Origin: Alphaproteobacteria bacterium
GTDB lineage: Bacteria > Pseudomonadota > Alphaproteobacteria > UBA6615
Direction: 5' to 3'
Length of the DNA: 64,000 nt
Assembly (NCBI GenBank): GCA_021774575.1
Contig: JAJFIX010000045.1
Coordinates: 1 to 64,000, forward strand
Both the position numbers and the translations under genes were made by a program. This document shows, piece after piece, positions 53,906-63,319 of the stretch (positions within the stretch are counted from its first letter, which is position 1; each line of letters opens with the position of its first letter). Below the pieces are notes generated by a model. The model was not told the DNA's origin and did not search any database. It saw only the letters and a program-made list of their open reading frames with translations.

Positions 53906-55105
53906 CTATTGGGAAATCAAGGGCCGCGAGCTTGCGCGAAAAATCGACCTAAATTCTCCACCGACAGCGGTGAAGGCGCCTTGCCGTCCAATCACGCCAT
54001 CTTCATTGTTAATCGACAGGGCGAGCAAGCAGAGCTTGATGCCGCGACCGACAAGGTCCGCCGATGGCAAGATCGGCAAGCGTGAGCCCGGTAGAAATTT
54101 ACCTTGCTTATGCGGGGAATCGTCCGCAACGAATTCGATGAGATCGGACACGCCAAAGTAATTCACGAAGGCGCAAGCAAGATGGCCAGCGCCAAAAAGA
54201 GCAATCGGCCCCTGTTCGGAGCGCACACGCTCAAGGGTTGTGCGTACTTCGCGGCGCGTTGGCTGAAATTTACGGGCATAACTATCGAGCAGTCCTACTT
54301 GGTTTTTCGCCGCCGAACTTATGCGCAGTTTTCCCGGCGCACCGGTCTTTCGGGCTAGATGAACAAGCGAGTTCTCGAACGGCCGTCGATATATGTCGGT
54401 GCGGATCGTCTCGAACCCCCCTATCGTCACTAGAGGTTCGAGCGTCTCAGGCGTCAGATAAAGAGAATGCTCTTCCCAGATCATGCAGTATTCGGCCAGG
54501 CGCAGGCTGTCAGTGCAGTCGGGCACCTCGATCATAACGATCCCGCCGGGCTTCACCAGCGCGCCAATGCCGCCGATGAACGCTTGCATATCTTCCACAT
54601 GTTCCGTGATATGTCGGGCAATGAAAATATCGGCTGCCCCGCGCCGTGCAGCAATGACCGCCATCCGCTCCGGATCGGTAAGTTTTTGCACGGTTTCAAT
54701 CCCGGCTGCCGGGTCGGTTACCCCAAGATCTTCGTCTAGCTTCACGCGCCAAGTATTCTCAAAACCGTTGCGCACAAACCTATCAACAGTCGTATCGTCC
54801 TTTTCCGTTAGGGCGCCGATAACGCTGTCCGGGCCCAGGCCTGGCATCGCGATAATTTGCTCGACAACCTCGTCAAGATGTTCTTCGGGCTCGCGGGCAA
54901 AAATCCAATCAAACGGCGGCACTAAGGATTCATGCCGAACCGGCTCCATAGCCTGGATTGTTCCACACTCGTTGCACTGGCCGAGCGCAAGCGTGAAGTT
55001 ACGTTCCGGATCACCCTTGTTCTTAAGGTAGAATGACGAAACAGGGTGGGAGCCAACATTTAGCCGTTCGACCAAAGAATCAGAGTGACAAACGAGACAA
55101 ACCAT
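53906..55105 (-). CDS. SAM methyltransferase-like protein with zinc-binding N-terminus
   Basis: 399 residues, related to sugar C-methyltransferases of the TylC3/NovU group. An N-terminal four-cysteine zinc site (CLVCHS and CNECGT) is followed by a methyltransferase-like fold with FIARHITEHVEDMQAF and LVKPGGIVMIEVPD. A C-terminal Methyltransf_14-like Rossmann part has PIALFGAGHLACAFVNYFG. The usual glycine-rich SAM motif I is replaced by VIGALTEKDDTTVDR, so methyl transfer is doubtful or uses a variant site. Last gene of the glycan operon proper. Confidence 0.8.
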   Translation of the reverse strand: MVCLVCHSDSLVERLNVGSHPVSSFYLKNKGDPERNFTLALGQCNECGTIQAMEPVRHESLVPPFDWIFAREPEEHLDEVVEQIIAMPGLGPDSVIGALTEKDDTTVDRFVRNGFENTWRVKLDEDLGVTDPAAGIETVQKLTDPERMAVIAARRGAADIFIARHITEHVEDMQAFIGGIGALVKPGGIVMIEVPDCTDSLRLAEYCMIWEEHSLYLTPETLEPLVTIGGFETIRTDIYRRPFENSLVHLARKTGAPGKLRISSAAKNQVGLLDSYARKFQPTRREVRTTLERVRSEQGPIALFGAGHLACAFVNYFGVSDLIEFVADDSPHKQGKFLPGSRLPILPSADLVGRGIKLCLLALSINNEDGVIGRQGAFTAVGGEFRSIFRASSRPLISQ

Positions 55106-55927: not shown

Positions 55928-56611
55928 TTATTCAACGCGCTTGCCAGCTCCGATAGCGAATACGTAGTTGGCCATTTTGTGAAAGCCAGTATGCACGACT
56001 TCGTCGTTCATGCTGAAAATAAGCACATTGTGAAAATACGCCAGCATGGTTTTCTTCAATTCCGGTGCGGTCTTGCAGTTCACATGCCCGATTTTCGATT
56101 GCGGCGATGCGTAGATTTGGCTCTCCAGAGATGGCAAGCCAATAATGGCGACGCCGTGCGGCCCAAGTGGCGCGAATGCATTTTTTAGGAAGACGTGTTC
56201 ACTCGAAGGATCAATATGCTCCAGAACGTCAAGGGCATAGACTGCGTCGAAGGATCCAGGAATAGGACCGTCGAGCAAATCGTGTACAAAGACGTCGAAC
56301 TGCCAGCGCGGCAACATGCGCGCCTTGACGTCTTCAAGGAACACCGCGTCGAAATCGGTCGCAGATAGCTTGCCAACTTCCGCCTGTACGATCCGAGTGC
56401 CAAAAGCGTCGCCGCATCCAATTTCGAGGACATGTTCATAATCGGTCAGCATCTTTGCAACGAACTTATAGCGCGATAACCGGAAGACAAGATGCTTTGG
56501 ATCCTCGTGCCAGCTCTCGCTACTCCGCAGGCCCAGTCGCTCGAAGCCCCGCGTAGAAGCGGCTTCAACGCAGACTTGATATTGTACTTCCTTGGTCTTC
56601 GATGTGCTCAT
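55928..56611 (-). CDS. Class I SAM-dependent methyltransferase
   Basis: 227 residues from the MSTSKTKEVQ methionine, 38 bp after the preceding gene. Motif I HVLEIGCGDAFGTRIV, acidic post-I residue ATDFDA, motif for the active face FDAVYALDVLEHID and NAFAPLGPHGVAIIGLP. Related to ubiquinone/sugar methyltransferases; substrate unknown. Position in the glycan cluster suggests sugar or acyl-group methylation. Confidence 0.88.
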   Translation of the reverse strand: MSTSKTKEVQYQVCVEAASTRGFERLGLRSSESWHEDPKHLVFRLSRYKFVAKMLTDYEHVLEIGCGDAFGTRIVQAEVGKLSATDFDAVFLEDVKARMLPRWQFDVFVHDLLDGPIPGSFDAVYALDVLEHIDPSSEHVFLKNAFAPLGPHGVAIIGLPSLESQIYASPQSKIGHVNCKTAPELKKTMLAYFHNVLIFSMNDEVVHTGFHKMANYVFAIGAGKRVE

Positions 56612-56649
56612 TTTATAATGTCCTGCCCAATACCCATTTCGTCGCCCGT

Positions 56650-57915
56650 CTAAATTGGTTTGTTGCCGTCCTTGCCGATCACTCGTGATTCGGGGCATAG
56701 AACAATAAACTGCCCACCCTTATCCAGGTATTCCTGACAGCTTTCTATGATTTTTTGCGAGTGTACCCAGGCCAGAATCACTGTGTAGTCGGGTTGTCGG
56801 GCGCAGAGTTCGGACGTTGCAATAACCGGAATGCCATCGCCTGATTCGAATTTGCCGATTTTTTGCGGATGATCGTCCAGGATGTAATCGATAACACCGG
56901 CGAGTCCGAACTGCGCGATCAAAGTTGGGCCGCTTCGCGCAGCACCGTAGCCGGCAATAGTTGCGCCCTCGTTTTTCAGTTTCTTCACGAATTCAGTCGT
57001 TCGCTGCCGCAGCCGCTGCACCTTCGCGTCGAACGCGCGCAATGTTTCCAACTCGCCCAAATTGCGCTCATCTTCAAGTTTCAACAGGTTTTCGAGCGAA
57101 TTCTCGACCGGCCGCTTGCCGCCTTTGAGCTGTACCATGCCGATTAGCGAGCCGTGCTGGATGGGCGCACGGTCCGCCGCGATCAACTCGAGGCCGTGGC
57201 GATCAAGGAACTTGACCATCGGTGCGGCAGAATGATGACTCATATGTTCGTGGAAGATCGTAGCGATGAGCATGCCGTCTATAATGTCCATGAGATACTG
57301 CGCCTCGAAGAAGAATAACCCGTCGGGCGCAAGCATTGTTCGTACGCATTCGGCGATTTCACCAAGATCATCGGCGTGGGCGAACACGTTGAAGGCACAT
57401 ATTATTTGTGCTGGCCCATGCTCTTCACGAATACTCCGCGCGAGATCAAGCGACATCAAGGATGGGATTGTCGGGATGCCCGACTTGTTCGCCTGCGCCG
57501 CGACCTCGGAAGCCGGATCGATGCCGAGGACTCGGCATCCACCCTGCTTGAACAGTTTCAATAACGAGCCGTCGTTGCTGCCAATGTCGATGACGAGCGA
57601 ATTTTCCGGCGGTCGGCTTTTCCTTGTGATCTTGTCTGCCATCTGCTGGAAGTGCTCTGGCATGCCCTTCGCGTTGCCCGAAAAATACGTGTACGATTCC
57701 CAAAGACTTTTCGAATCGATGACATCGAGCTGTTGCACATGGCCGCAATCGCTGCACATATAGACATCAACGGGATAGCGGGGGGCGTTCATTACCGCCG
57801 TCCGGTCGACTGAGTAATTCTCGGACAGCGGGATCGGCTGGAGTTCCACGACACGTTCGATACTGCTGGAGTCGCAGAGACGACATGTTTGCCGGCGGAT
57901 GACGGTAACGTTCAT
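56650..57915 (-). CDS. NDP-sugar 3-C-methyltransferase family protein (TylC3/NovU type)
   Basis: 421 residues. An N-terminal zinc domain (CRLC at 11-14 and CSDC at 54-57) is followed by the SAM domain with LVIDIGSNDGSLLKLFKQGG, and the HEHMSHHSAAP catalytic-type histidine segment. The C-terminal Methyltransf_14 Rossmann-like domain has ATIAGYGAARSGPTLIAQFG. Such enzymes put a methyl branch on NDP-deoxyketosugars, so the cluster probably makes a C-methylated sugar. Its start overlaps the SDR stop (TAATG). Confidence 0.9.
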   Translation of the reverse strand: MNVTVIRRQTCRLCDSSSIERVVELQPIPLSENYSVDRTAVMNAPRYPVDVYMCSDCGHVQQLDVIDSKSLWESYTYFSGNAKGMPEHFQQMADKITRKSRPPENSLVIDIGSNDGSLLKLFKQGGCRVLGIDPASEVAAQANKSGIPTIPSLMSLDLARSIREEHGPAQIICAFNVFAHADDLGEIAECVRTMLAPDGLFFFEAQYLMDIIDGMLIATIFHEHMSHHSAAPMVKFLDRHGLELIAADRAPIQHGSLIGMVQLKGGKRPVENSLENLLKLEDERNLGELETLRAFDAKVQRLRQRTTEFVKKLKNEGATIAGYGAARSGPTLIAQFGLAGVIDYILDDHPQKIGKFESGDGIPVIATSELCARQPDYTVILAWVHSQKIIESCQEYLDKGGQFIVLCPESRVIGKDGNKPI

Positions 57916-58826
57916 TAACTAATTCCTTCGCTTCTCGCTTTTTGATCGGCGATCAAATCGCCCGCGAGTTGATCGACCCCGAGCGGTTTAATACCTGTCA
58001 GCTGCGTTGTCCTGGCCATTCCCAATCCACTATAACGCGGCTTGAAGGCGATGTTTATTCCTTTCGCAACGGACGTCGTCGGCTTGATCAGACCCGGGTC
58101 GATACCGAGACGGCGCGCCAGCGCATGCGCGAAGTCGACATAACTAATATTCTCCGCGTTGGACAAATGCATGTTGCCCGGAATGCGTTTTTCGGCGATC
58201 GTTGCAAGCGCATGGCCCGCGAACGCCACGGTGAGAGGTGCGAAGATCAAGTCTTCGAATGGTTCGATCGGGTCGCCGCCTTGCCAGGACGCAAACCATG
58301 CGGGAAGCGGCGAGACGCCAGCGTTCATAATCTTGGTCAATCGAACGATGTTCAAACGGTCAGTTGCGTTCAGTCGCCCCACGATATCCCGAATTGCCGC
58401 CTCGCCTTCGGATTTTTGGCGGGCATAGGCAATGTCTGGAAAATGCGGATCGTCCTCCTTCGGCCACGGTCGTTCGCCGCCAAACACCGAATTAGTCGAA
58501 ATGAATGTGACGAACAGGCCCTGCTCAATTAGTGAACCCACCAATTTCGGGATCAGTTCTACATTGATAACCCGTGCAAGCGGATCCGTTTCGCATCGAT
58601 CATAGTCCGTCGCCGCCGCGACAACCATGGCATATTCGATCCCGTTTGGCACACGGTAGGTCTCACCGTTTTCGAAGTCGAGAAACACCCGCCCCGGGTC
58701 CAGCGTGTCCTTTCGGCGAGTGCTCGCCAACACATTATGCCCACGCCCTTTAAGAGCCGCTATCACACTGGCGCCGACAAGGCTGTCACCGCCAATGATC
58801 AGAATTTTCGGTTTGTCGGCCGTCAC
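57915..58826 (-). CDS. RmlD/SDR-type NAD(P)-dependent sugar reductase
   Basis: 303 residues from the GTG of VTADKPKILIIGG; the frame is open 41 codons upstream. Rossmann motif IGGDSLVGASV, catalytic YxxxK as AYARQKSEGE, upstream TFISTNSVFGGERPW with the serine/threonine, and a C-terminal substrate part with NMHLSNAENISYVDFA. RmlD relatives reduce dTDP-4-keto-sugars. With the adjacent C-methyltransferase this makes a plausible late step of a branched deoxysugar. Confidence 0.85.
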   Translation of the reverse strand: MTADKPKILIIGGDSLVGASVIAALKGRGHNVLASTRRKDTLDPGRVFLDFENGETYRVPNGIEYAMVVAAATDYDRCETDPLARVINVELIPKLVGSLIEQGLFVTFISTNSVFGGERPWPKEDDPHFPDIAYARQKSEGEAAIRDIVGRLNATDRLNIVRLTKIMNAGVSPLPAWFASWQGGDPIEPFEDLIFAPLTVAFAGHALATIAEKRIPGNMHLSNAENISYVDFAHALARRLGIDPGLIKPTTSVAKGINIAFKPRYSGLGMARTTQLTGIKPLGVDQLAGDLIADQKARSEGIS

Positions 58827-58964
58827 AATACAAATCCCATCATCTCTAAAAACATGGATTGAAACGGACAAAACACGATATTGGTCTCGTCGTAGCAGCG
58901 GCCCAGTTCCGAATGCGGCAATTAGTAAAATGGCAGCGGAACCGTTCACCTGCCTGATGTCCGA

Positions 58965-60923
58965 CTACCCCGAATTTCGTGTTAATGGTTCGGCGTCCGT
59001 CTCGCTGAGCGAACGTCGGCGCATCGAGACGAGTGTACTGCTGCAGATGTTCGGGCAGGTCGAAATTCCGTTTCGCAGCCGAAAATTGTTCAACGCCGTT
59101 AACATTACGGCGATCGGCCAAAATACGGCGCCGGCAGAAAATTGCGGTAGCCCCCTCAGATTAGTCAGCCACAGCTTTCTAAACAAATAGCGCTCGGTCC
59201 GATGCAAACACCATTTGAGGATACCGCCAGCATAGGCAGACGTTACCTCGTAAGCCAGCCAATTTTCAGGAAAAAACGTATCAGCGCTCCCCGTCAATTC
59301 GATCCCGTCAATTATGGAATATTCGCCATTTTTGCGACCTTCGATGAAAATCGCGACTGTTCCACCCGGCTTTAGGCAGCGTTGGGCATTTTCAAAAATA
59401 TTCGAAATCGCACTGTCTTCCCAGGAATAAATGTGCAAGAAAATATTGTCGTACAACGTCGCATCGCCCACGTCGTTCGCGCACGGCAAGGGCCTGGCTG
59501 TCGCAATGAATTTGTCCACATCCAGCAAAACGTCGAACGGAGCAAAATTGTGGAGCGTATTGGCCATCGGGCTACGGTCGTCACAAACAAGGAGGTTGCG
59601 CCGATGTGGCCTTTTCTTCATTTCCTCTATCCATTTCAGAACAATACGTGAATCCAGCCAGAGATGGTGCCAGATAGAAATGTTGGGCATCACTCCGGCC
59701 ATCTTGCGGAGGTAGCCGAAGAAATCTACATAGAATTGAGCAACGCCAACACGCTTAGAAACGTTAAAAGTGTGCGCAAACTTTTTCTGCGATACGACAA
59801 GTTCAGGGGGCACAACCGGCGTGAGGTGAGGCTTGTCGGTATTTTTTAACACCGCCCAGTTATTGACACCGCGACTCCAATAGTAATGATCGATATGATT
59901 TATCGGCCGCGCATGCATGTGCGATTGGATTTGCTGCAGGAAATTGGCCAGCTGTTTTCTTGCTTCAGGAAGTTTTTCGGATGCCTCGCCGGTCCGAAAT
60001 AGGACATCCACATTTGCGTATTGGCGGTGCTCGCGCGTAGTCCAGCTAGACAGCTCTTTCGCAATTTGCTTCGGCTTCAAGGCCCCGTTAGCCAAGAACG
60101 ACTTTTCTCGAGAGTTTGGTTGCAGCTCAAGCATGAAAAATTCATCGGAATCGTCAAGAATGGTGAAGTTTCCCGATGGCACCATTTCTGGAACAAAACC
60201 ATAATCGCAATATGAATTGACAGGGCCAATCGGCACTTCCGGCTTAATGGCAAGCATAAAAATGAGGTGATAACGGGCGAGCAGGGTATTGTCGTCTACC
60301 TGCCAGTAAATTTGATTATGTGTCGTACATCCAACAAAATTTTGCGTAACGGTCTTGGCGATAGTGGTCGGGTGAAGGTTGCGGAACGCTAGGTCAACTA
60401 AGTCACGGGACGGAATTGATAAGATTCCCGTCTCCTTATCAACGGCTTCAACCAAGTGAGGCAAAATAGTTTCGGTGTTGCTCCGCAAGCTCGGTGCCAA
60501 TATGCACCGGTGTCCCTCGCGCAATTTATCGACCGCCGTGCGTAGAGAATTTTCGGACAGAATAAAATCCGAGTTCATAAAGAAAAAACAGGTCTCGGTT
60601 TGCTGGTCACCGCTATCGCGAATTCCTCGGGCATAGGCGAGCGTCAGCGTCACACCGTAAGCCTCAGTCGTGATCAAATCGTCGATGAGAATTAATCGAA
60701 CCGGGCAGAGAGATTTCAAGATTGTAAAGTTCGGATGCTCATCAAAATTCGGCTGGCTCTCCTCCGAAGTAAGAATCAAAATTTCAACGTCGAACGCTTC
60801 TGCAAGCGCCGGCAAATTTCCCGAAGATAGGTAGGACGGCAATGATACGAGGCAAAACTCTTCGATGTATCGAGCACCCCAGATCGCCGTCAGAAATTTG
60901 ACCTTCATTTTTTCAGTCTTCAT
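58965..60923 (-). CDS. Two-domain glycosyltransferase-like and methyltransferase-like fusion
   Basis: 652 residues. The N-terminal half (KVKFLTAIWGARYIEEFC onward) is a glycosyltransferase-like fold with a FFFMNSDFILS segment (about 113-123), in which NSD probably replaces the usual DxD metal site. The second half resembles a methyltransferase, with LLVCDDRSPM, DVLLDVDKFIATARPLP, DNIFLHIYSWEDSAIS and QRCLKPGGTVAIFIEGR (around 530-550). A hydrophobic region and basic tail follow. I cannot name the family. Possible substrate is a lipid-linked sugar; start at MKTEKMKVKF or five residues later. Confidence 0.7.
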   Translation of the reverse strand: MKTEKMKVKFLTAIWGARYIEEFCLVSLPSYLSSGNLPALAEAFDVEILILTSEESQPNFDEHPNFTILKSLCPVRLILIDDLITTEAYGVTLTLAYARGIRDSGDQQTETCFFFMNSDFILSENSLRTAVDKLREGHRCILAPSLRSNTETILPHLVEAVDKETGILSIPSRDLVDLAFRNLHPTTIAKTVTQNFVGCTTHNQIYWQVDDNTLLARYHLIFMLAIKPEVPIGPVNSYCDYGFVPEMVPSGNFTILDDSDEFFMLELQPNSREKSFLANGALKPKQIAKELSSWTTREHRQYANVDVLFRTGEASEKLPEARKQLANFLQQIQSHMHARPINHIDHYYWSRGVNNWAVLKNTDKPHLTPVVPPELVVSQKKFAHTFNVSKRVGVAQFYVDFFGYLRKMAGVMPNISIWHHLWLDSRIVLKWIEEMKKRPHRRNLLVCDDRSPMANTLHNFAPFDVLLDVDKFIATARPLPCANDVGDATLYDNIFLHIYSWEDSAISNIFENAQRCLKPGGTVAIFIEGRKNGEYSIIDGIELTGSADTFFPENWLAYEVTSAYAGGILKWCLHRTERYLFRKLWLTNLRGLPQFSAGAVFWPIAVMLTALNNFRLRNGISTCPNICSSTLVSMRRRSLSETDAEPLTRNSG

Positions 60924-60946: not shown

Positions 60947-61609
60947 TTATTCGAAATAGATAAATTCATGATCACCGGTATAGCCAGATTGTTCAAAAAT
61001 CCATTTCCATTCCTGCGGTGTGTGGAAGGCCCGGCAGGTGAGCTGCCAGTACATCAGGTTCATTTTTTCCCGCTCGTTGCGATACCCCTCGACACAGAGA
61101 TATTTACTTTCCTTGGCGACCCGCTCCATTTCCCCGAGGGCTGAAAATAGCTCGTCGACATAAAGGTTGTGCAAGGTGGTAATCGAGATCACCAGGTCAA
61201 AATGATTGTCGGGCCAGGGCAGAGATGTCGCAGATCCGACCTGGCAATGGGGTTTTACCGTCTCCATCGTATGCTGGATGCCATATGACGAGATATCAAT
61301 GCCAGCAACCTCGACGCCAGGGCAGGCTTCAGTAAAATCGTGCAGCAGGAAGCCTTTACCCGAACCGATGTCTAGAATGCGCATGCCAGGTTTAATATTA
61401 TAGGCCTCGACCATCGCGTCGGCGACTTTGCGCCAGCGCCCGTCGTATTTGTAGCCACCATAGCCAGAGATACGGTCTCCGTCCCAATAGTCGTAGCCCC
61501 ACTGGATGGCTTTTTCGGATGCTTCGGCCTTATCGACTTCATTGACTCGCGCTAGGTAGTCGCGCTGTGTCGACTTATGGATCAGGCCAACGAATTCTCG
61601 GTTTGCCAT
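60947..61609 (-). CDS. Class I SAM-dependent methyltransferase
   Basis: 220 residues from MANREFVG, which has a ribosome site (GAAAG) in the 29-bp gap behind the kinase gene. Motif I MRILDIGSGKGFLLHDF, motif II VEVAGIDISSYGIQH, DLVISITTLHNL and a SLPWPDNHFDL post-motif. UbiE-like fold; the tail with MYWQLTCRAFHTPQEWKWIF may bind the substrate. 23 bp before the fusion gene. Confidence 0.9.
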   Translation of the reverse strand: MANREFVGLIHKSTQRDYLARVNEVDKAEASEKAIQWGYDYWDGDRISGYGGYKYDGRWRKVADAMVEAYNIKPGMRILDIGSGKGFLLHDFTEACPGVEVAGIDISSYGIQHTMETVKPHCQVGSATSLPWPDNHFDLVISITTLHNLYVDELFSALGEMERVAKESKYLCVEGYRNEREKMNLMYWQLTCRAFHTPQEWKWIFEQSGYTGDHEFIYFE

Positions 61610-61638
61610 AGGTTTTTCTTTCCAAATCCAGTTAATTA

Positions 61639-62670
61639 TTAGGTCGTCCGGATATTGCCAAGCGCTGCAAAGGCGCGGCTCGCCTTGGCCAATTGACGGG
61701 CGCAACGTTCGGCACGGGGGGCTTGGTCGGCGTGTGTACGCCTGCGTTCGCCGCCAGGCAAAAAATCGTTCAGCATGATGCACATCCATTTGATACGATA
61801 GACATCGAGCAGCAGTGTCGCCCGTTGCCCATGCCTAGGCGGCAAACCCAGACCTGTCAATACGCCGACGATAAAACGGTCGTGATGAAATGCCGGGATC
61901 GGAATTTCCGGCTGACAGAGAAAATCGCAGATCAGTTTCGCCGGGTCGTCGAGGCCGGCATATTCAAAATCGATGAAGATCGTTTGCGCGCGTCTGCGCA
62001 ACACATTGTGAAACCCAAAATCCGAGGGGGATATACATCTTTCGTCCATAGGCAGTTCGGTATCGGGCAGCAAACCGAGACTCTCAGCCGCATCGAAGGC
62101 CGCCGCTTTTACCGCCAACCAGCGCGGTTCCAATAAATCTGTGACGAATGTCTCGGTCTCGGCGCGCGAGGGCGCTTCCGGGTCGAGCGCGGTCAATTGA
62201 TCGACGCGCCCCTGAACCGCCTCTATATGTGCGGCCAAGGAGAAATGGGCTTCGGATGCGAGTTCGATGGCGTCAGTATCGCGGGGCGCAGCGTTTATCG
62301 ACGCAATGAAATCCAACGCCGCTTGGATCGCGGTTGCGTCGACATCTTTGGCGGTCATTCGGCGACCGTCGATGAAACCGATCAGCGATGCATTTTCCTG
62401 CGCGTCGAAAGTGATGGGCTCGGGAATCGCCCGCACACCGTGCCGCCATGCATATTCGAGGAAACGCCATTCGGCGCCGAGCCGGTCCCGCGTGTCCAGC
62501 GGATCTTTGTGGTAAATTTTTAGGACGACGAACCGGTCATCCCCTAGATGAACCTTGAAAACTCGATTGTTGCGGCCTCCCACAAGCTGCTCCACAGCGC
62601 TAGGTTTCGGCAAGCCCGCCTTGTCGGTGAGCCGCGCGGCTAGATCGGCCGGTGTAGGATTACCGCCCAT
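61639..62670 (-). CDS. APH/choline kinase-fold phosphotransferase
   Basis: 343 residues from MGGNPTPADL, whose ATG follows the HAD stop by 1 bp (TGA-A-ATG). The N-lobe has VGGRNNRVFKVHL and the ATP lysine in VLKIYH (51). The catalytic loop SDFGFHN (216-222) keeps Asp217 and Asn222 but lacks the usual histidine, and FIDFEYAGLDDP (233-244) supplies the metal-binding aspartate. It may phosphorylate a sugar, choline or a related alcohol. The partner HAD and dehydrogenase suggest a small-molecule pathway. Confidence 0.85.
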   Translation of the reverse strand: MGGNPTPADLAARLTDKAGLPKPSAVEQLVGGRNNRVFKVHLGDDRFVVLKIYHKDPLDTRDRLGAEWRFLEYAWRHGVRAIPEPITFDAQENASLIGFIDGRRMTAKDVDATAIQAALDFIASINAAPRDTDAIELASEAHFSLAAHIEAVQGRVDQLTALDPEAPSRAETETFVTDLLEPRWLAVKAAAFDAAESLGLLPDTELPMDERCISPSDFGFHNVLRRRAQTIFIDFEYAGLDDPAKLICDFLCQPEIPIPAFHHDRFIVGVLTGLGLPPRHGQRATLLLDVYRIKWMCIMLNDFLPGGERRRTHADQAPRAERCARQLAKASRAFAALGNIRTT

Positions 62671-62671
62671 T

Positions 62672-63319
62672 TCAGAAGTCGGGCTCGAGAAACGCGGCGG
62701 CGATATCCGCCCAGCTTGCGAAATATTCGAAAACCTTGTCGTTCCATTCTCCACCCGGATAATGGCCATCAGGCGCGAAAAGAATTGGTCGCGTGGTGCT
62801 CGGGAAGCCTTCCTTGCCGAGACATTCGGGTAAATCATCAAAAAAGACGGTGCAACCCAGCGCGCCGATGCGAGACAGTTTCTCATCCATGGTTAGCTCG
62901 AAAAACACCAGACTATCGGAGAGCTGGTCCGGTCCGGATCCCATAATGCCTTGATCAAACAGAAAATCGCGCGCAGCCCGGTGCAGGTCGTATTCGGGGC
63001 CCATGAACGGTGTACGGGTCTTGTGGCTGACGACGAAGACCTCATGGTTGGCACCAACGGCGCGAGCGACAAAGTCTTTTACGCCGGGATAGCATGAAAC
63101 AAGGTCCATGCCGGCGCCATAGATATAGCCTTGCAGCTTGGTCCAGTCGTCCTCGCGGCCAGTTTGGCGGAGAAAATCGCGCACGCTGGTCTTGTCGGTA
63201 CCAATATTCTCGGGAATCAGGCCGCGCTCGCGTGCTGCGGCGTGAAAAACGCCGTCGTAACAAGCAATCGTGTTGTCAAAATCTATGCCGATCCGCATTT
63301 GTTGCTGCATCGCGGTCAA
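62672..63319 (-). CDS. HAD-superfamily phosphatase
   Basis: 215 residues. Motif I IGIDFDNTIACYDG with Asp13 and Asp15, motif II VVSHKT, and VFFDDLPECLG as motif IV. Cap insertion is of C0/C1 size. Start at the ATG overlapping the dehydrogenase stop by 4 bp (ATGA); a methionine at residue 8 is possible. Coupled on both sides, so dephosphorylation and phosphorylation are produced together, perhaps for one sugar phosphate. Confidence 0.88.
   Translation of the reverse strand: MTAMQQQMRIGIDFDNTIACYDGVFHAAARERGLIPENIGTDKTSVRDFLRQTGREDDWTKLQGYIYGAGMDLVSCYPGVKDFVARAVGANHEVFVVSHKTRTPFMGPEYDLHRAARDFLFDQGIMGSGPDQLSDSLVFFELTMDEKLSRIGALGCTVFFDDLPECLGKEGFPSTTRPILFAPDGHYPGGEWNDKVFEYFASWADIAAAFLEPDF

What the first reader, a model, noticed from the sequence alone, without database searches (positions are those of the whole stretch)
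58965..60923. Unusual glycosyltransferase-methyltransferase fusion
A single 652-aa chain couples a glycosyltransferase-like half with NSDF in place of DxD to a methyltransferase-like half with an LKPGG motif. I recognise no named family. Fusion could mean that the added sugar is methylated in place, or that methylation caps chain growth.
Basis: partly seen in the sequence, partly recalled or inferred. Interest (0 to 1): 0.65.

Follow-up and report, generated by a model that had tools for sequence, protein, structure and literature searches.

The report
Glycosyltransferase with dead methyltransferase-like tail
This bacterial protein joins a probable sugar-transferring enzyme, from a family missing from the protein-family libraries, to a tail with a methyltransferase's shape but no methyl-donor site; the tail has been kept for a long time across many bacteria, so it probably does some non-catalytic job.

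Summary
The ORF is real: minus strand, 652 aa, inside a glycan gene cluster, with no Pfam, NCBIfam or PDB sequence match. The N-half (about 1-345) is confidently predicted as a GT-A glycosyltransferase fold (pLDDT 95.6; listed VIA matches are all GT-A enzymes). It belongs to an uncatalogued family found in 24 of 386 sampled alphaproteobacteria and in betaproteobacteria. The "NSDF" reading holds: only the last Asp of the DxD position is kept, D119, invariant in 51/51 relatives. The C-half (about 401-645) has a class I methyltransferase fold (Z 11.9), but strand 3 and its helices are missing, none of 20 homologues has the SAM-binding glycine motif, and no polar column is conserved in 80% of homologues, against 32 in the N-half. 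Ordinary methyltransferases in the same loci keep the motif. The fusion group is one branch (22 rows, support 100/100). Best reading: an active glycosyltransferase carrying a pseudo-methyltransferase module with a hydrophobic helix, which docks the enzyme to the membrane, a lipid-linked acceptor or a partner. The docking role is inferred.

The parts
58965..60923 (-). P0001, 652-aa GT-A / pseudo-methyltransferase fusion gene
59889..60923 (-). N-domain (aa 1-345): GT-A glycosyltransferase fold, uncatalogued family
   Evidence: AlphaFold2 pLDDT 95.6, pTM 0.93 for aa 1-380; listed VIA matches all GT-A, Foldseek in agreement; homologues
60564..60575 (-). NSDF (aa 117-120) at the DxD position; D119 invariant in 51/51 relatives
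59724..59888 (-). variable linker (aa 346-400)
58989..59723 (-). C-domain (aa 401-645): class I methyltransferase fold lacking the SAM site
59568..59597 (-). place of SAM motif I (aa 443-452, NLLVCDDRSP): no glycines
59361..59375 (-). LKPGG (aa 517-521), between helix D and strand 5 of the fold; does not by itself bind SAM
59076..59150 (-). hydrophobic helix (aa 592-616) between strands 6 and 7
60947..61789 (-). neighbour: intact class I methyltransferase (MTa, motif LDIGSGKG); true start probably further in
55928..56698 (-). neighbour: intact class I methyltransferase (MTb), the most conserved companion of P0001 homologues
57915..58949 (-). neighbour: RmlD-like reductase (true start probably further in)
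56650..57915 (-). neighbour: sugar C-methyltransferase with intact motif (CMT1)

Best explanation
P0001 is a metal-dependent GT-A glycosyltransferase that adds a nucleotide-activated sugar, probably one made by the neighbouring heptose-type and C-methylation genes, to a growing membrane-linked glycan. Its C-terminal part is a pseudo-methyltransferase: a class I methyltransferase fold that lost the SAM-binding strand-helix elements before the clade diversified. It is kept as a docking module that holds the enzyme at the membrane, at a lipid-linked acceptor or on a partner, through its hydrophobic helix. Shown by computation: both folds, loss of the SAM signature, one branch for the whole fusion group, conserved gene neighbourhood. 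Inferred: glycosyltransferase activity (from fold and invariant residues), metal dependence, the donor sugar, the docking role.
For: N-half: pLDDT 95.6, pTM 0.93; every listed VIA match is a GT-A glycosyltransferase, best K4 chondroitin polymerase, Z 12.4, rmsd 4.1, 229 residues; 7 of 51 members weakly match Pfam Glycos_transf_2, best E 9e-4; D119 invariant in 51/51, D240 in all but the fasciclin-fused group. C-half: pLDDT 79, pTM 0.79, no strand 3; best VIA match CmoM, Z 11.9, rmsd 4.2, 185 residues; 0/20 carry [DE]xGx[GN] while neighbours MTa, MTb and CMT1 do; columns conserved in 80% of the same 20 proteins: 73 of 345 (32 polar) in the N-half, 3 of 240 (0 polar) in the C-half. The fused group is one side of a branch, 100/100. 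The C-domain was found only fused to this GT. Hydrophobic stretch between strands 6 and 7 in most homologues. Conserved companions: HldE-like, MTb, nucleotidyltransferase, transketolase genes.
Against: No biochemistry. Donor, acceptor and docking role are untested. The C-half alignment is shallow (20 rows) and the model only moderately confident, so an unusual SAM site or another ligand cannot be fully excluded. P0001's own hydrophobic helix (mean hydropathy 1.35) is too weak to be a clear transmembrane segment. Strict DxD is not met.
Confidence: 0.62

Rival explanations
1. Bifunctional enzyme: the N-half adds a sugar and the C-half methylates it, or caps the chain, with SAM.
For: C-half has a class I methyltransferase fold and LKPGG; the locus is rich in methyltransferases.
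Against: No SAM glycine motif in P0001 or any of 20 homologues, strand 3 missing, no conserved polar residue in the C-half; intact methyltransferases are already encoded next door.
Confidence: 0.06
2. Pseudoenzyme partner: the dead methyltransferase domain pairs with the intact neighbouring methyltransferase MTb (or another one) and activates or positions it, so that glycosylation and methylation are coupled in a complex rather than in one chain.
For: MTb homologues (52-73% identity) are encoded near 7 of 18 fused homologues studied besides the window's own. Pairs of one dead and one active methyltransferase are known elsewhere (own knowledge).
Against: MTb was not seen in the fetched stretch of other fused homologues (some of them short contigs); no contact was predicted or tested here.
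Confidence: 0.15
3. The C-domain binds another small ligand (a nucleotide, a sugar nucleotide or a prenyl phosphate) and acts as a sensor or substrate holder.
For: Some of the best Foldseek matches are prenyl-pyrophosphate methyltransferases, but many unrelated methyltransferases score nearly as well.
Against: No conserved polar residues that could form a pocket.
Confidence: 0.1
4. The N-half is a GT-A fold without glycosyltransferase activity (dead, or a nucleotidyltransferase).
For: Only one acidic residue is kept at the DxD position; a few nucleotidyltransferases appear among Foldseek matches.
Against: Strong conservation of D81, D82, R99, D119, H184, D240, D258 to D260 across the fused clade; best structural matches are glycosyltransferases.
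Confidence: 0.06

Closest known systems
GT-A fold, GT2-like inverting glycosyltransferases (K4 chondroitin polymerase, heparosan synthase 2, TarP/TarS, SpsA)
   Same: Predicted fold over about 170-230 residues (Z 10.6-12.4); invariant Asp at the last position of DxD; a second conserved Asp (D240) about 120 residues later, a candidate base.
   Different: 6-17% identity; first Asp of DxD replaced; P0001 reaches no Pfam or NCBIfam model.
Class I SAM-dependent methyltransferases (CmoM, UbiG, phosphoethanolamine methyltransferases)
   Same: C-half fold, Z up to 11.9; LKPGG-type turn before strand 5.
   Different: No E/DxGxGxG, no strand 3, no conserved acid after strand 2.
Dre2/anamorsin N-terminal domain
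   Same: A methyltransferase fold lacking two helices and a strand, and the glycine-rich SAM loop (PMC3440578); anamorsin 4m7r is among the matches (Z 8.7).
   Different: Unrelated eukaryotic iron-sulfur protein; here the domain is fused to a glycosyltransferase and carries a hydrophobic helix.
Methyltransferase chain terminators such as WbdD
   Same: A methyltransferase-type domain in a polysaccharide locus.
   Different: From own knowledge WbdD pairs an active methyltransferase with a kinase; P0001 shows no kinase domain and no SAM motif.

Membership tests
Class I SAM-dependent methyltransferase (active) | Rossmann-like sheet in order 3214576 (definition as in PMC3440578) | tested here: inconclusive
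   Fold match to class I methyltransferases, Z 11.9, but the model shows no strand 3 or its helices
[quoted passage not shown]
   P0001 reads NLLVCDDRSP; 0 of 20 homologues match [DE]xGx[GN]
Class I SAM-dependent methyltransferase (active) | Acidic residue at the end of strand 2 | tested here: inconclusive
   P0001 has D468 and D470 there, but no acid is conserved at that place in the homologues
Class I SAM-dependent methyltransferase (active) | Pfam Methyltransf_11 or _25 gathering score | tested here: not met
   14.8 bits against 21.2 and 13.1 against 27 for the C-domain alone
Class I SAM-dependent methyltransferase (active) | SAM binding or methyl transfer | not testable with these tools
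   needs protein
GT-A glycosyltransferase | GT-A fold | tested here: met
GT-A glycosyltransferase | Strict DxD metal motif | tested here: not met
   xxD: N-S-D in P0001; last Asp invariant in 51/51. Variants of DxD are known among GT-A enzymes (own knowledge)
GT-A glycosyltransferase | Nucleotide-sugar dependent transfer | not testable with these tools
   needs protein
Pfam Glycos_transf_2 (PF00535) | Gathering score | tested here: not met
   P0001 has no match; 7 of 51 relatives have weak matches, best E 9e-4
WbdD-type methyltransferase-kinase terminator | Active methyltransferase plus kinase in one chain | tested here: not met
   No kinase domain by Pfam in P0001; SAM motif absent

The most novel reading that the evidence does not exclude
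An undescribed glycosyltransferase family has recruited different C-terminal modules in different lineages (dead methyltransferase, fasciclin) as non-catalytic docking units, and the dead methyltransferase couples glycosylation to an intact neighbouring methyltransferase as a pseudoenzyme partner.
Probability: 0.2. Interest if true: 0.6.

Novelty: new variant of a known kind. Interest (0 to 1): 0.38.

Why it matters
It defines a glycosyltransferase family that the standard libraries miss, with several lineage-specific module fusions, and gives a bacterial example of a long-retained dead methyltransferase domain. Anyone annotating such genes from the fold or from LKPGG alone would wrongly call a bifunctional methylating glycosyltransferase.

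Tried and rejected
Searching genome contigs with the single protein found no relatives; the broad N-domain alignment was too variable for that tool, and a narrower one worked. Phages: no match; plasmids: one distant match, Solidesulfovibrio. PDB sequence searches gave nothing significant for the N-half and, for the C-half, weak methyltransferase matches mostly confined to the strand 4-5 part. Profile comparison of the C-half with the MTb family was negative, so its descent from methyltransferases rests mainly on fold. A link to bradyrhizose was considered because of the Bradyrhizobium homologues; the paper on that O-antigen (PMC4743980) does not mention strain STM 3843 and calls the bradyrhizose genes unknown, so it was not pursued. 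No paper on a glycosyltransferase / pseudo-methyltransferase fusion was found, in an incomplete library.

Full report
Observation. The ORF at 58965-60923 reads on the minus strand as 652 aa without a stop. NSDF is aa 117-120 and LKPGG aa 517-521. Neither Pfam nor NCBIfam gives a match above cut-off, and the PDB sequences give none at all. The gene starts 23 bases after the end of an upstream methyltransferase gene; the start may be M1 or M6, as the Bradyrhizobium homologue begins at the position of M6.

Setting. The genome is an alphaproteobacterium: one 'same class' genome (G110) has two contigs with the same lengths and matches as public records titled Alphaproteobacteria. The genes that I could identify from about 51.6 to 74.7 kb of the contig all run on the minus strand. 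By Pfam and NCBIfam or by my reading of the translations they are: an ABC transporter, a family 2 glycosyltransferase, an HldE-like kinase/nucleotidyltransferase, a nucleotidyltransferase, two SDRs, a GmhA-like isomerase, a split transketolase, a zinc alcohol dehydrogenase, a HAD-like protein, an APH-type kinase, methyltransferase MTa, P0001, an RmlD-like reductase, C-methyltransferase CMT1, methyltransferase MTb, a WbuC cupin, the CMT1-like CMT2 and an acyltransferase. This looks like a surface-glycan locus for a modified, probably heptose-derived sugar (inference).

N-half. Homologues of aa 6-350 were found in 7 of 95 genomes, the window's own included, and, with a profile, in 24 of 386 genomes of the class. 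A scan of named genomes added Bradyrhizobium sp. STM 3843, a Sideroxydans, other betaproteobacteria, Xanthobacteraceae and a Parvibaculum (names as in the records; one MAG is labelled Bordetella parapertussis, a label I did not check). The structure model of aa 1-380 from 51 sequences is very confident, pLDDT 95.6, pTM 0.93. All 50 VIA rows are GT-A glycosyltransferases, the best being K4 chondroitin polymerase at Z 12.4, rmsd 4.1, 229 residues; Foldseek agrees, with a few nucleotidyltransferases. Seven of 51 members weakly match Pfam Glycos_transf_2. At the DxD position the family has xxD: D119 is invariant in 51/51, together with W15, G16 and N36. D240 is kept in all groups but the fasciclin-fused one, and D81, D82, R99, H184, S259, D260 and E266 are invariant in the fused clade. 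I propose D119 as a metal ligand and D240 as a candidate base; this is inference.

Architectures. The same N-domain occurs alone, in tandem genes, repeated within proteins of about 1000 aa, with N-terminal TPR repeats, with a C-terminal fasciclin domain (once also with a HAD domain), and with the methyltransferase-like C-domain. A maximum-likelihood tree of 51 N-domains puts the 22 methyltransferase-fused rows on one side of a branch with support 100/100, and the 9 fasciclin rows likewise. Pfam supports fasciclin only in L019 and, just below cut-off, L056; the other fasciclin labels, and some TPR labels and truncated fused rows, rest on my reading of sequence similarity.

C-half. The model of aa 383-652 from 20 sequences has pLDDT 79 and pTM 0.79. 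The matches are class I methyltransferase folds, best CmoM of E. coli, Z 11.9, rmsd 4.2, 185 residues. But the element order is strand 1, a four-residue helix, strand 2, a short helix, about 16 residues of coil, then strand 4: strand 3 and its helices are missing. Where SAM enzymes carry E/DxGxGxG (definition in PMC3440578), P0001 has NLLVCDDRSP, and none of 20 homologues matches [DE]xGx[GN]. As an internal control, the window's MTa, MTb and CMT1 and most of their relatives in the same loci do match it at the right place; in a few relatives the simple pattern missed it or hit another place first, and L093's MTb, for instance, reads VLEVGCADAFG. Among the same 20 proteins, 73 of 345 N-half columns are conserved in at least 80% of rows, 32 of them polar, against 3 of 240 and none polar in the C-half. 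The C-domain was found only fused to this N-domain; weaker matches are partial. Between strands 6 and 7 lies a pair of helices, the second hydrophobic: best 19-residue mean hydropathy 1.0-2.8 across homologues, 1.35 in P0001. That suggests membrane contact rather than a clear transmembrane span.

Neighbourhood of homologues. Of 18 loci with fused homologues, six have an HldE-like gene at 50% identity or more within the fetched stretch, and seven have an MTb homologue at 52-74% (two of these seen). Sideroxydans L083 carries almost the whole set in one run: transketolase, APH, alcohol dehydrogenase, CMT2-like, WbuC, RmlD-like, CMT1, MTb, P0001, HldE, nucleotidyltransferase. One Bradyrhizobium contig has two fused copies and a stand-alone copy in one glycan region. 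I did not compute a chance expectation; the stretches searched are about 20 kb in genomes of millions of bases.

Interpretation. The two-domain anatomy is confirmed, the catalytic coupling is not. The long retention of a catalytically unconserved but foldable domain argues for a structural role; I favour docking at the membrane, the lipid-linked acceptor or a partner. Dre2/anamorsin is a known parallel of an eroded methyltransferase fold (PMC3440578).

Limits. No full-length model, no ligand modelling, shallow C-domain alignment, open-access papers only.

Noticed in passing
window 53906-55105 (-), and homologues L092:7869-9077, L091:2964-4217, L083:5129-6349: CMT2, a Methyltransf_13/14-type protein, also lacks the SAM motif I that its neighbour CMT1 keeps; its family has its own conserved motif there (KDD[TS]T...RF), unlike the unpatterned loss in P0001. 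It may bind something other than SAM.
   Followed up: partly
window 62672-63319 (-): Protein with a HAD-like DxDxT start but no Pfam match at E 1; 60% identical in Bradyrhizobium sp. STM 3843.
   Followed up: no
L066:920-4156 and L066:4233-7265: Two adjacent proteins of about 1000 aa, each with two copies of the new glycosyltransferase domain (one copy degenerate), in one alphaproteobacterial genome.
   Followed up: no
L019:7478-9490 (-): One chain with the new glycosyltransferase domain, a fasciclin domain and a HAD phosphatase domain.
   Followed up: no
L022:4393-6152 (contig of the window, 64393-66152): Split transketolase (N and C genes) inside the glycan locus, conserved beside several P0001 homologues; may supply a carbon-branched or long-chain sugar.
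   Followed up: no
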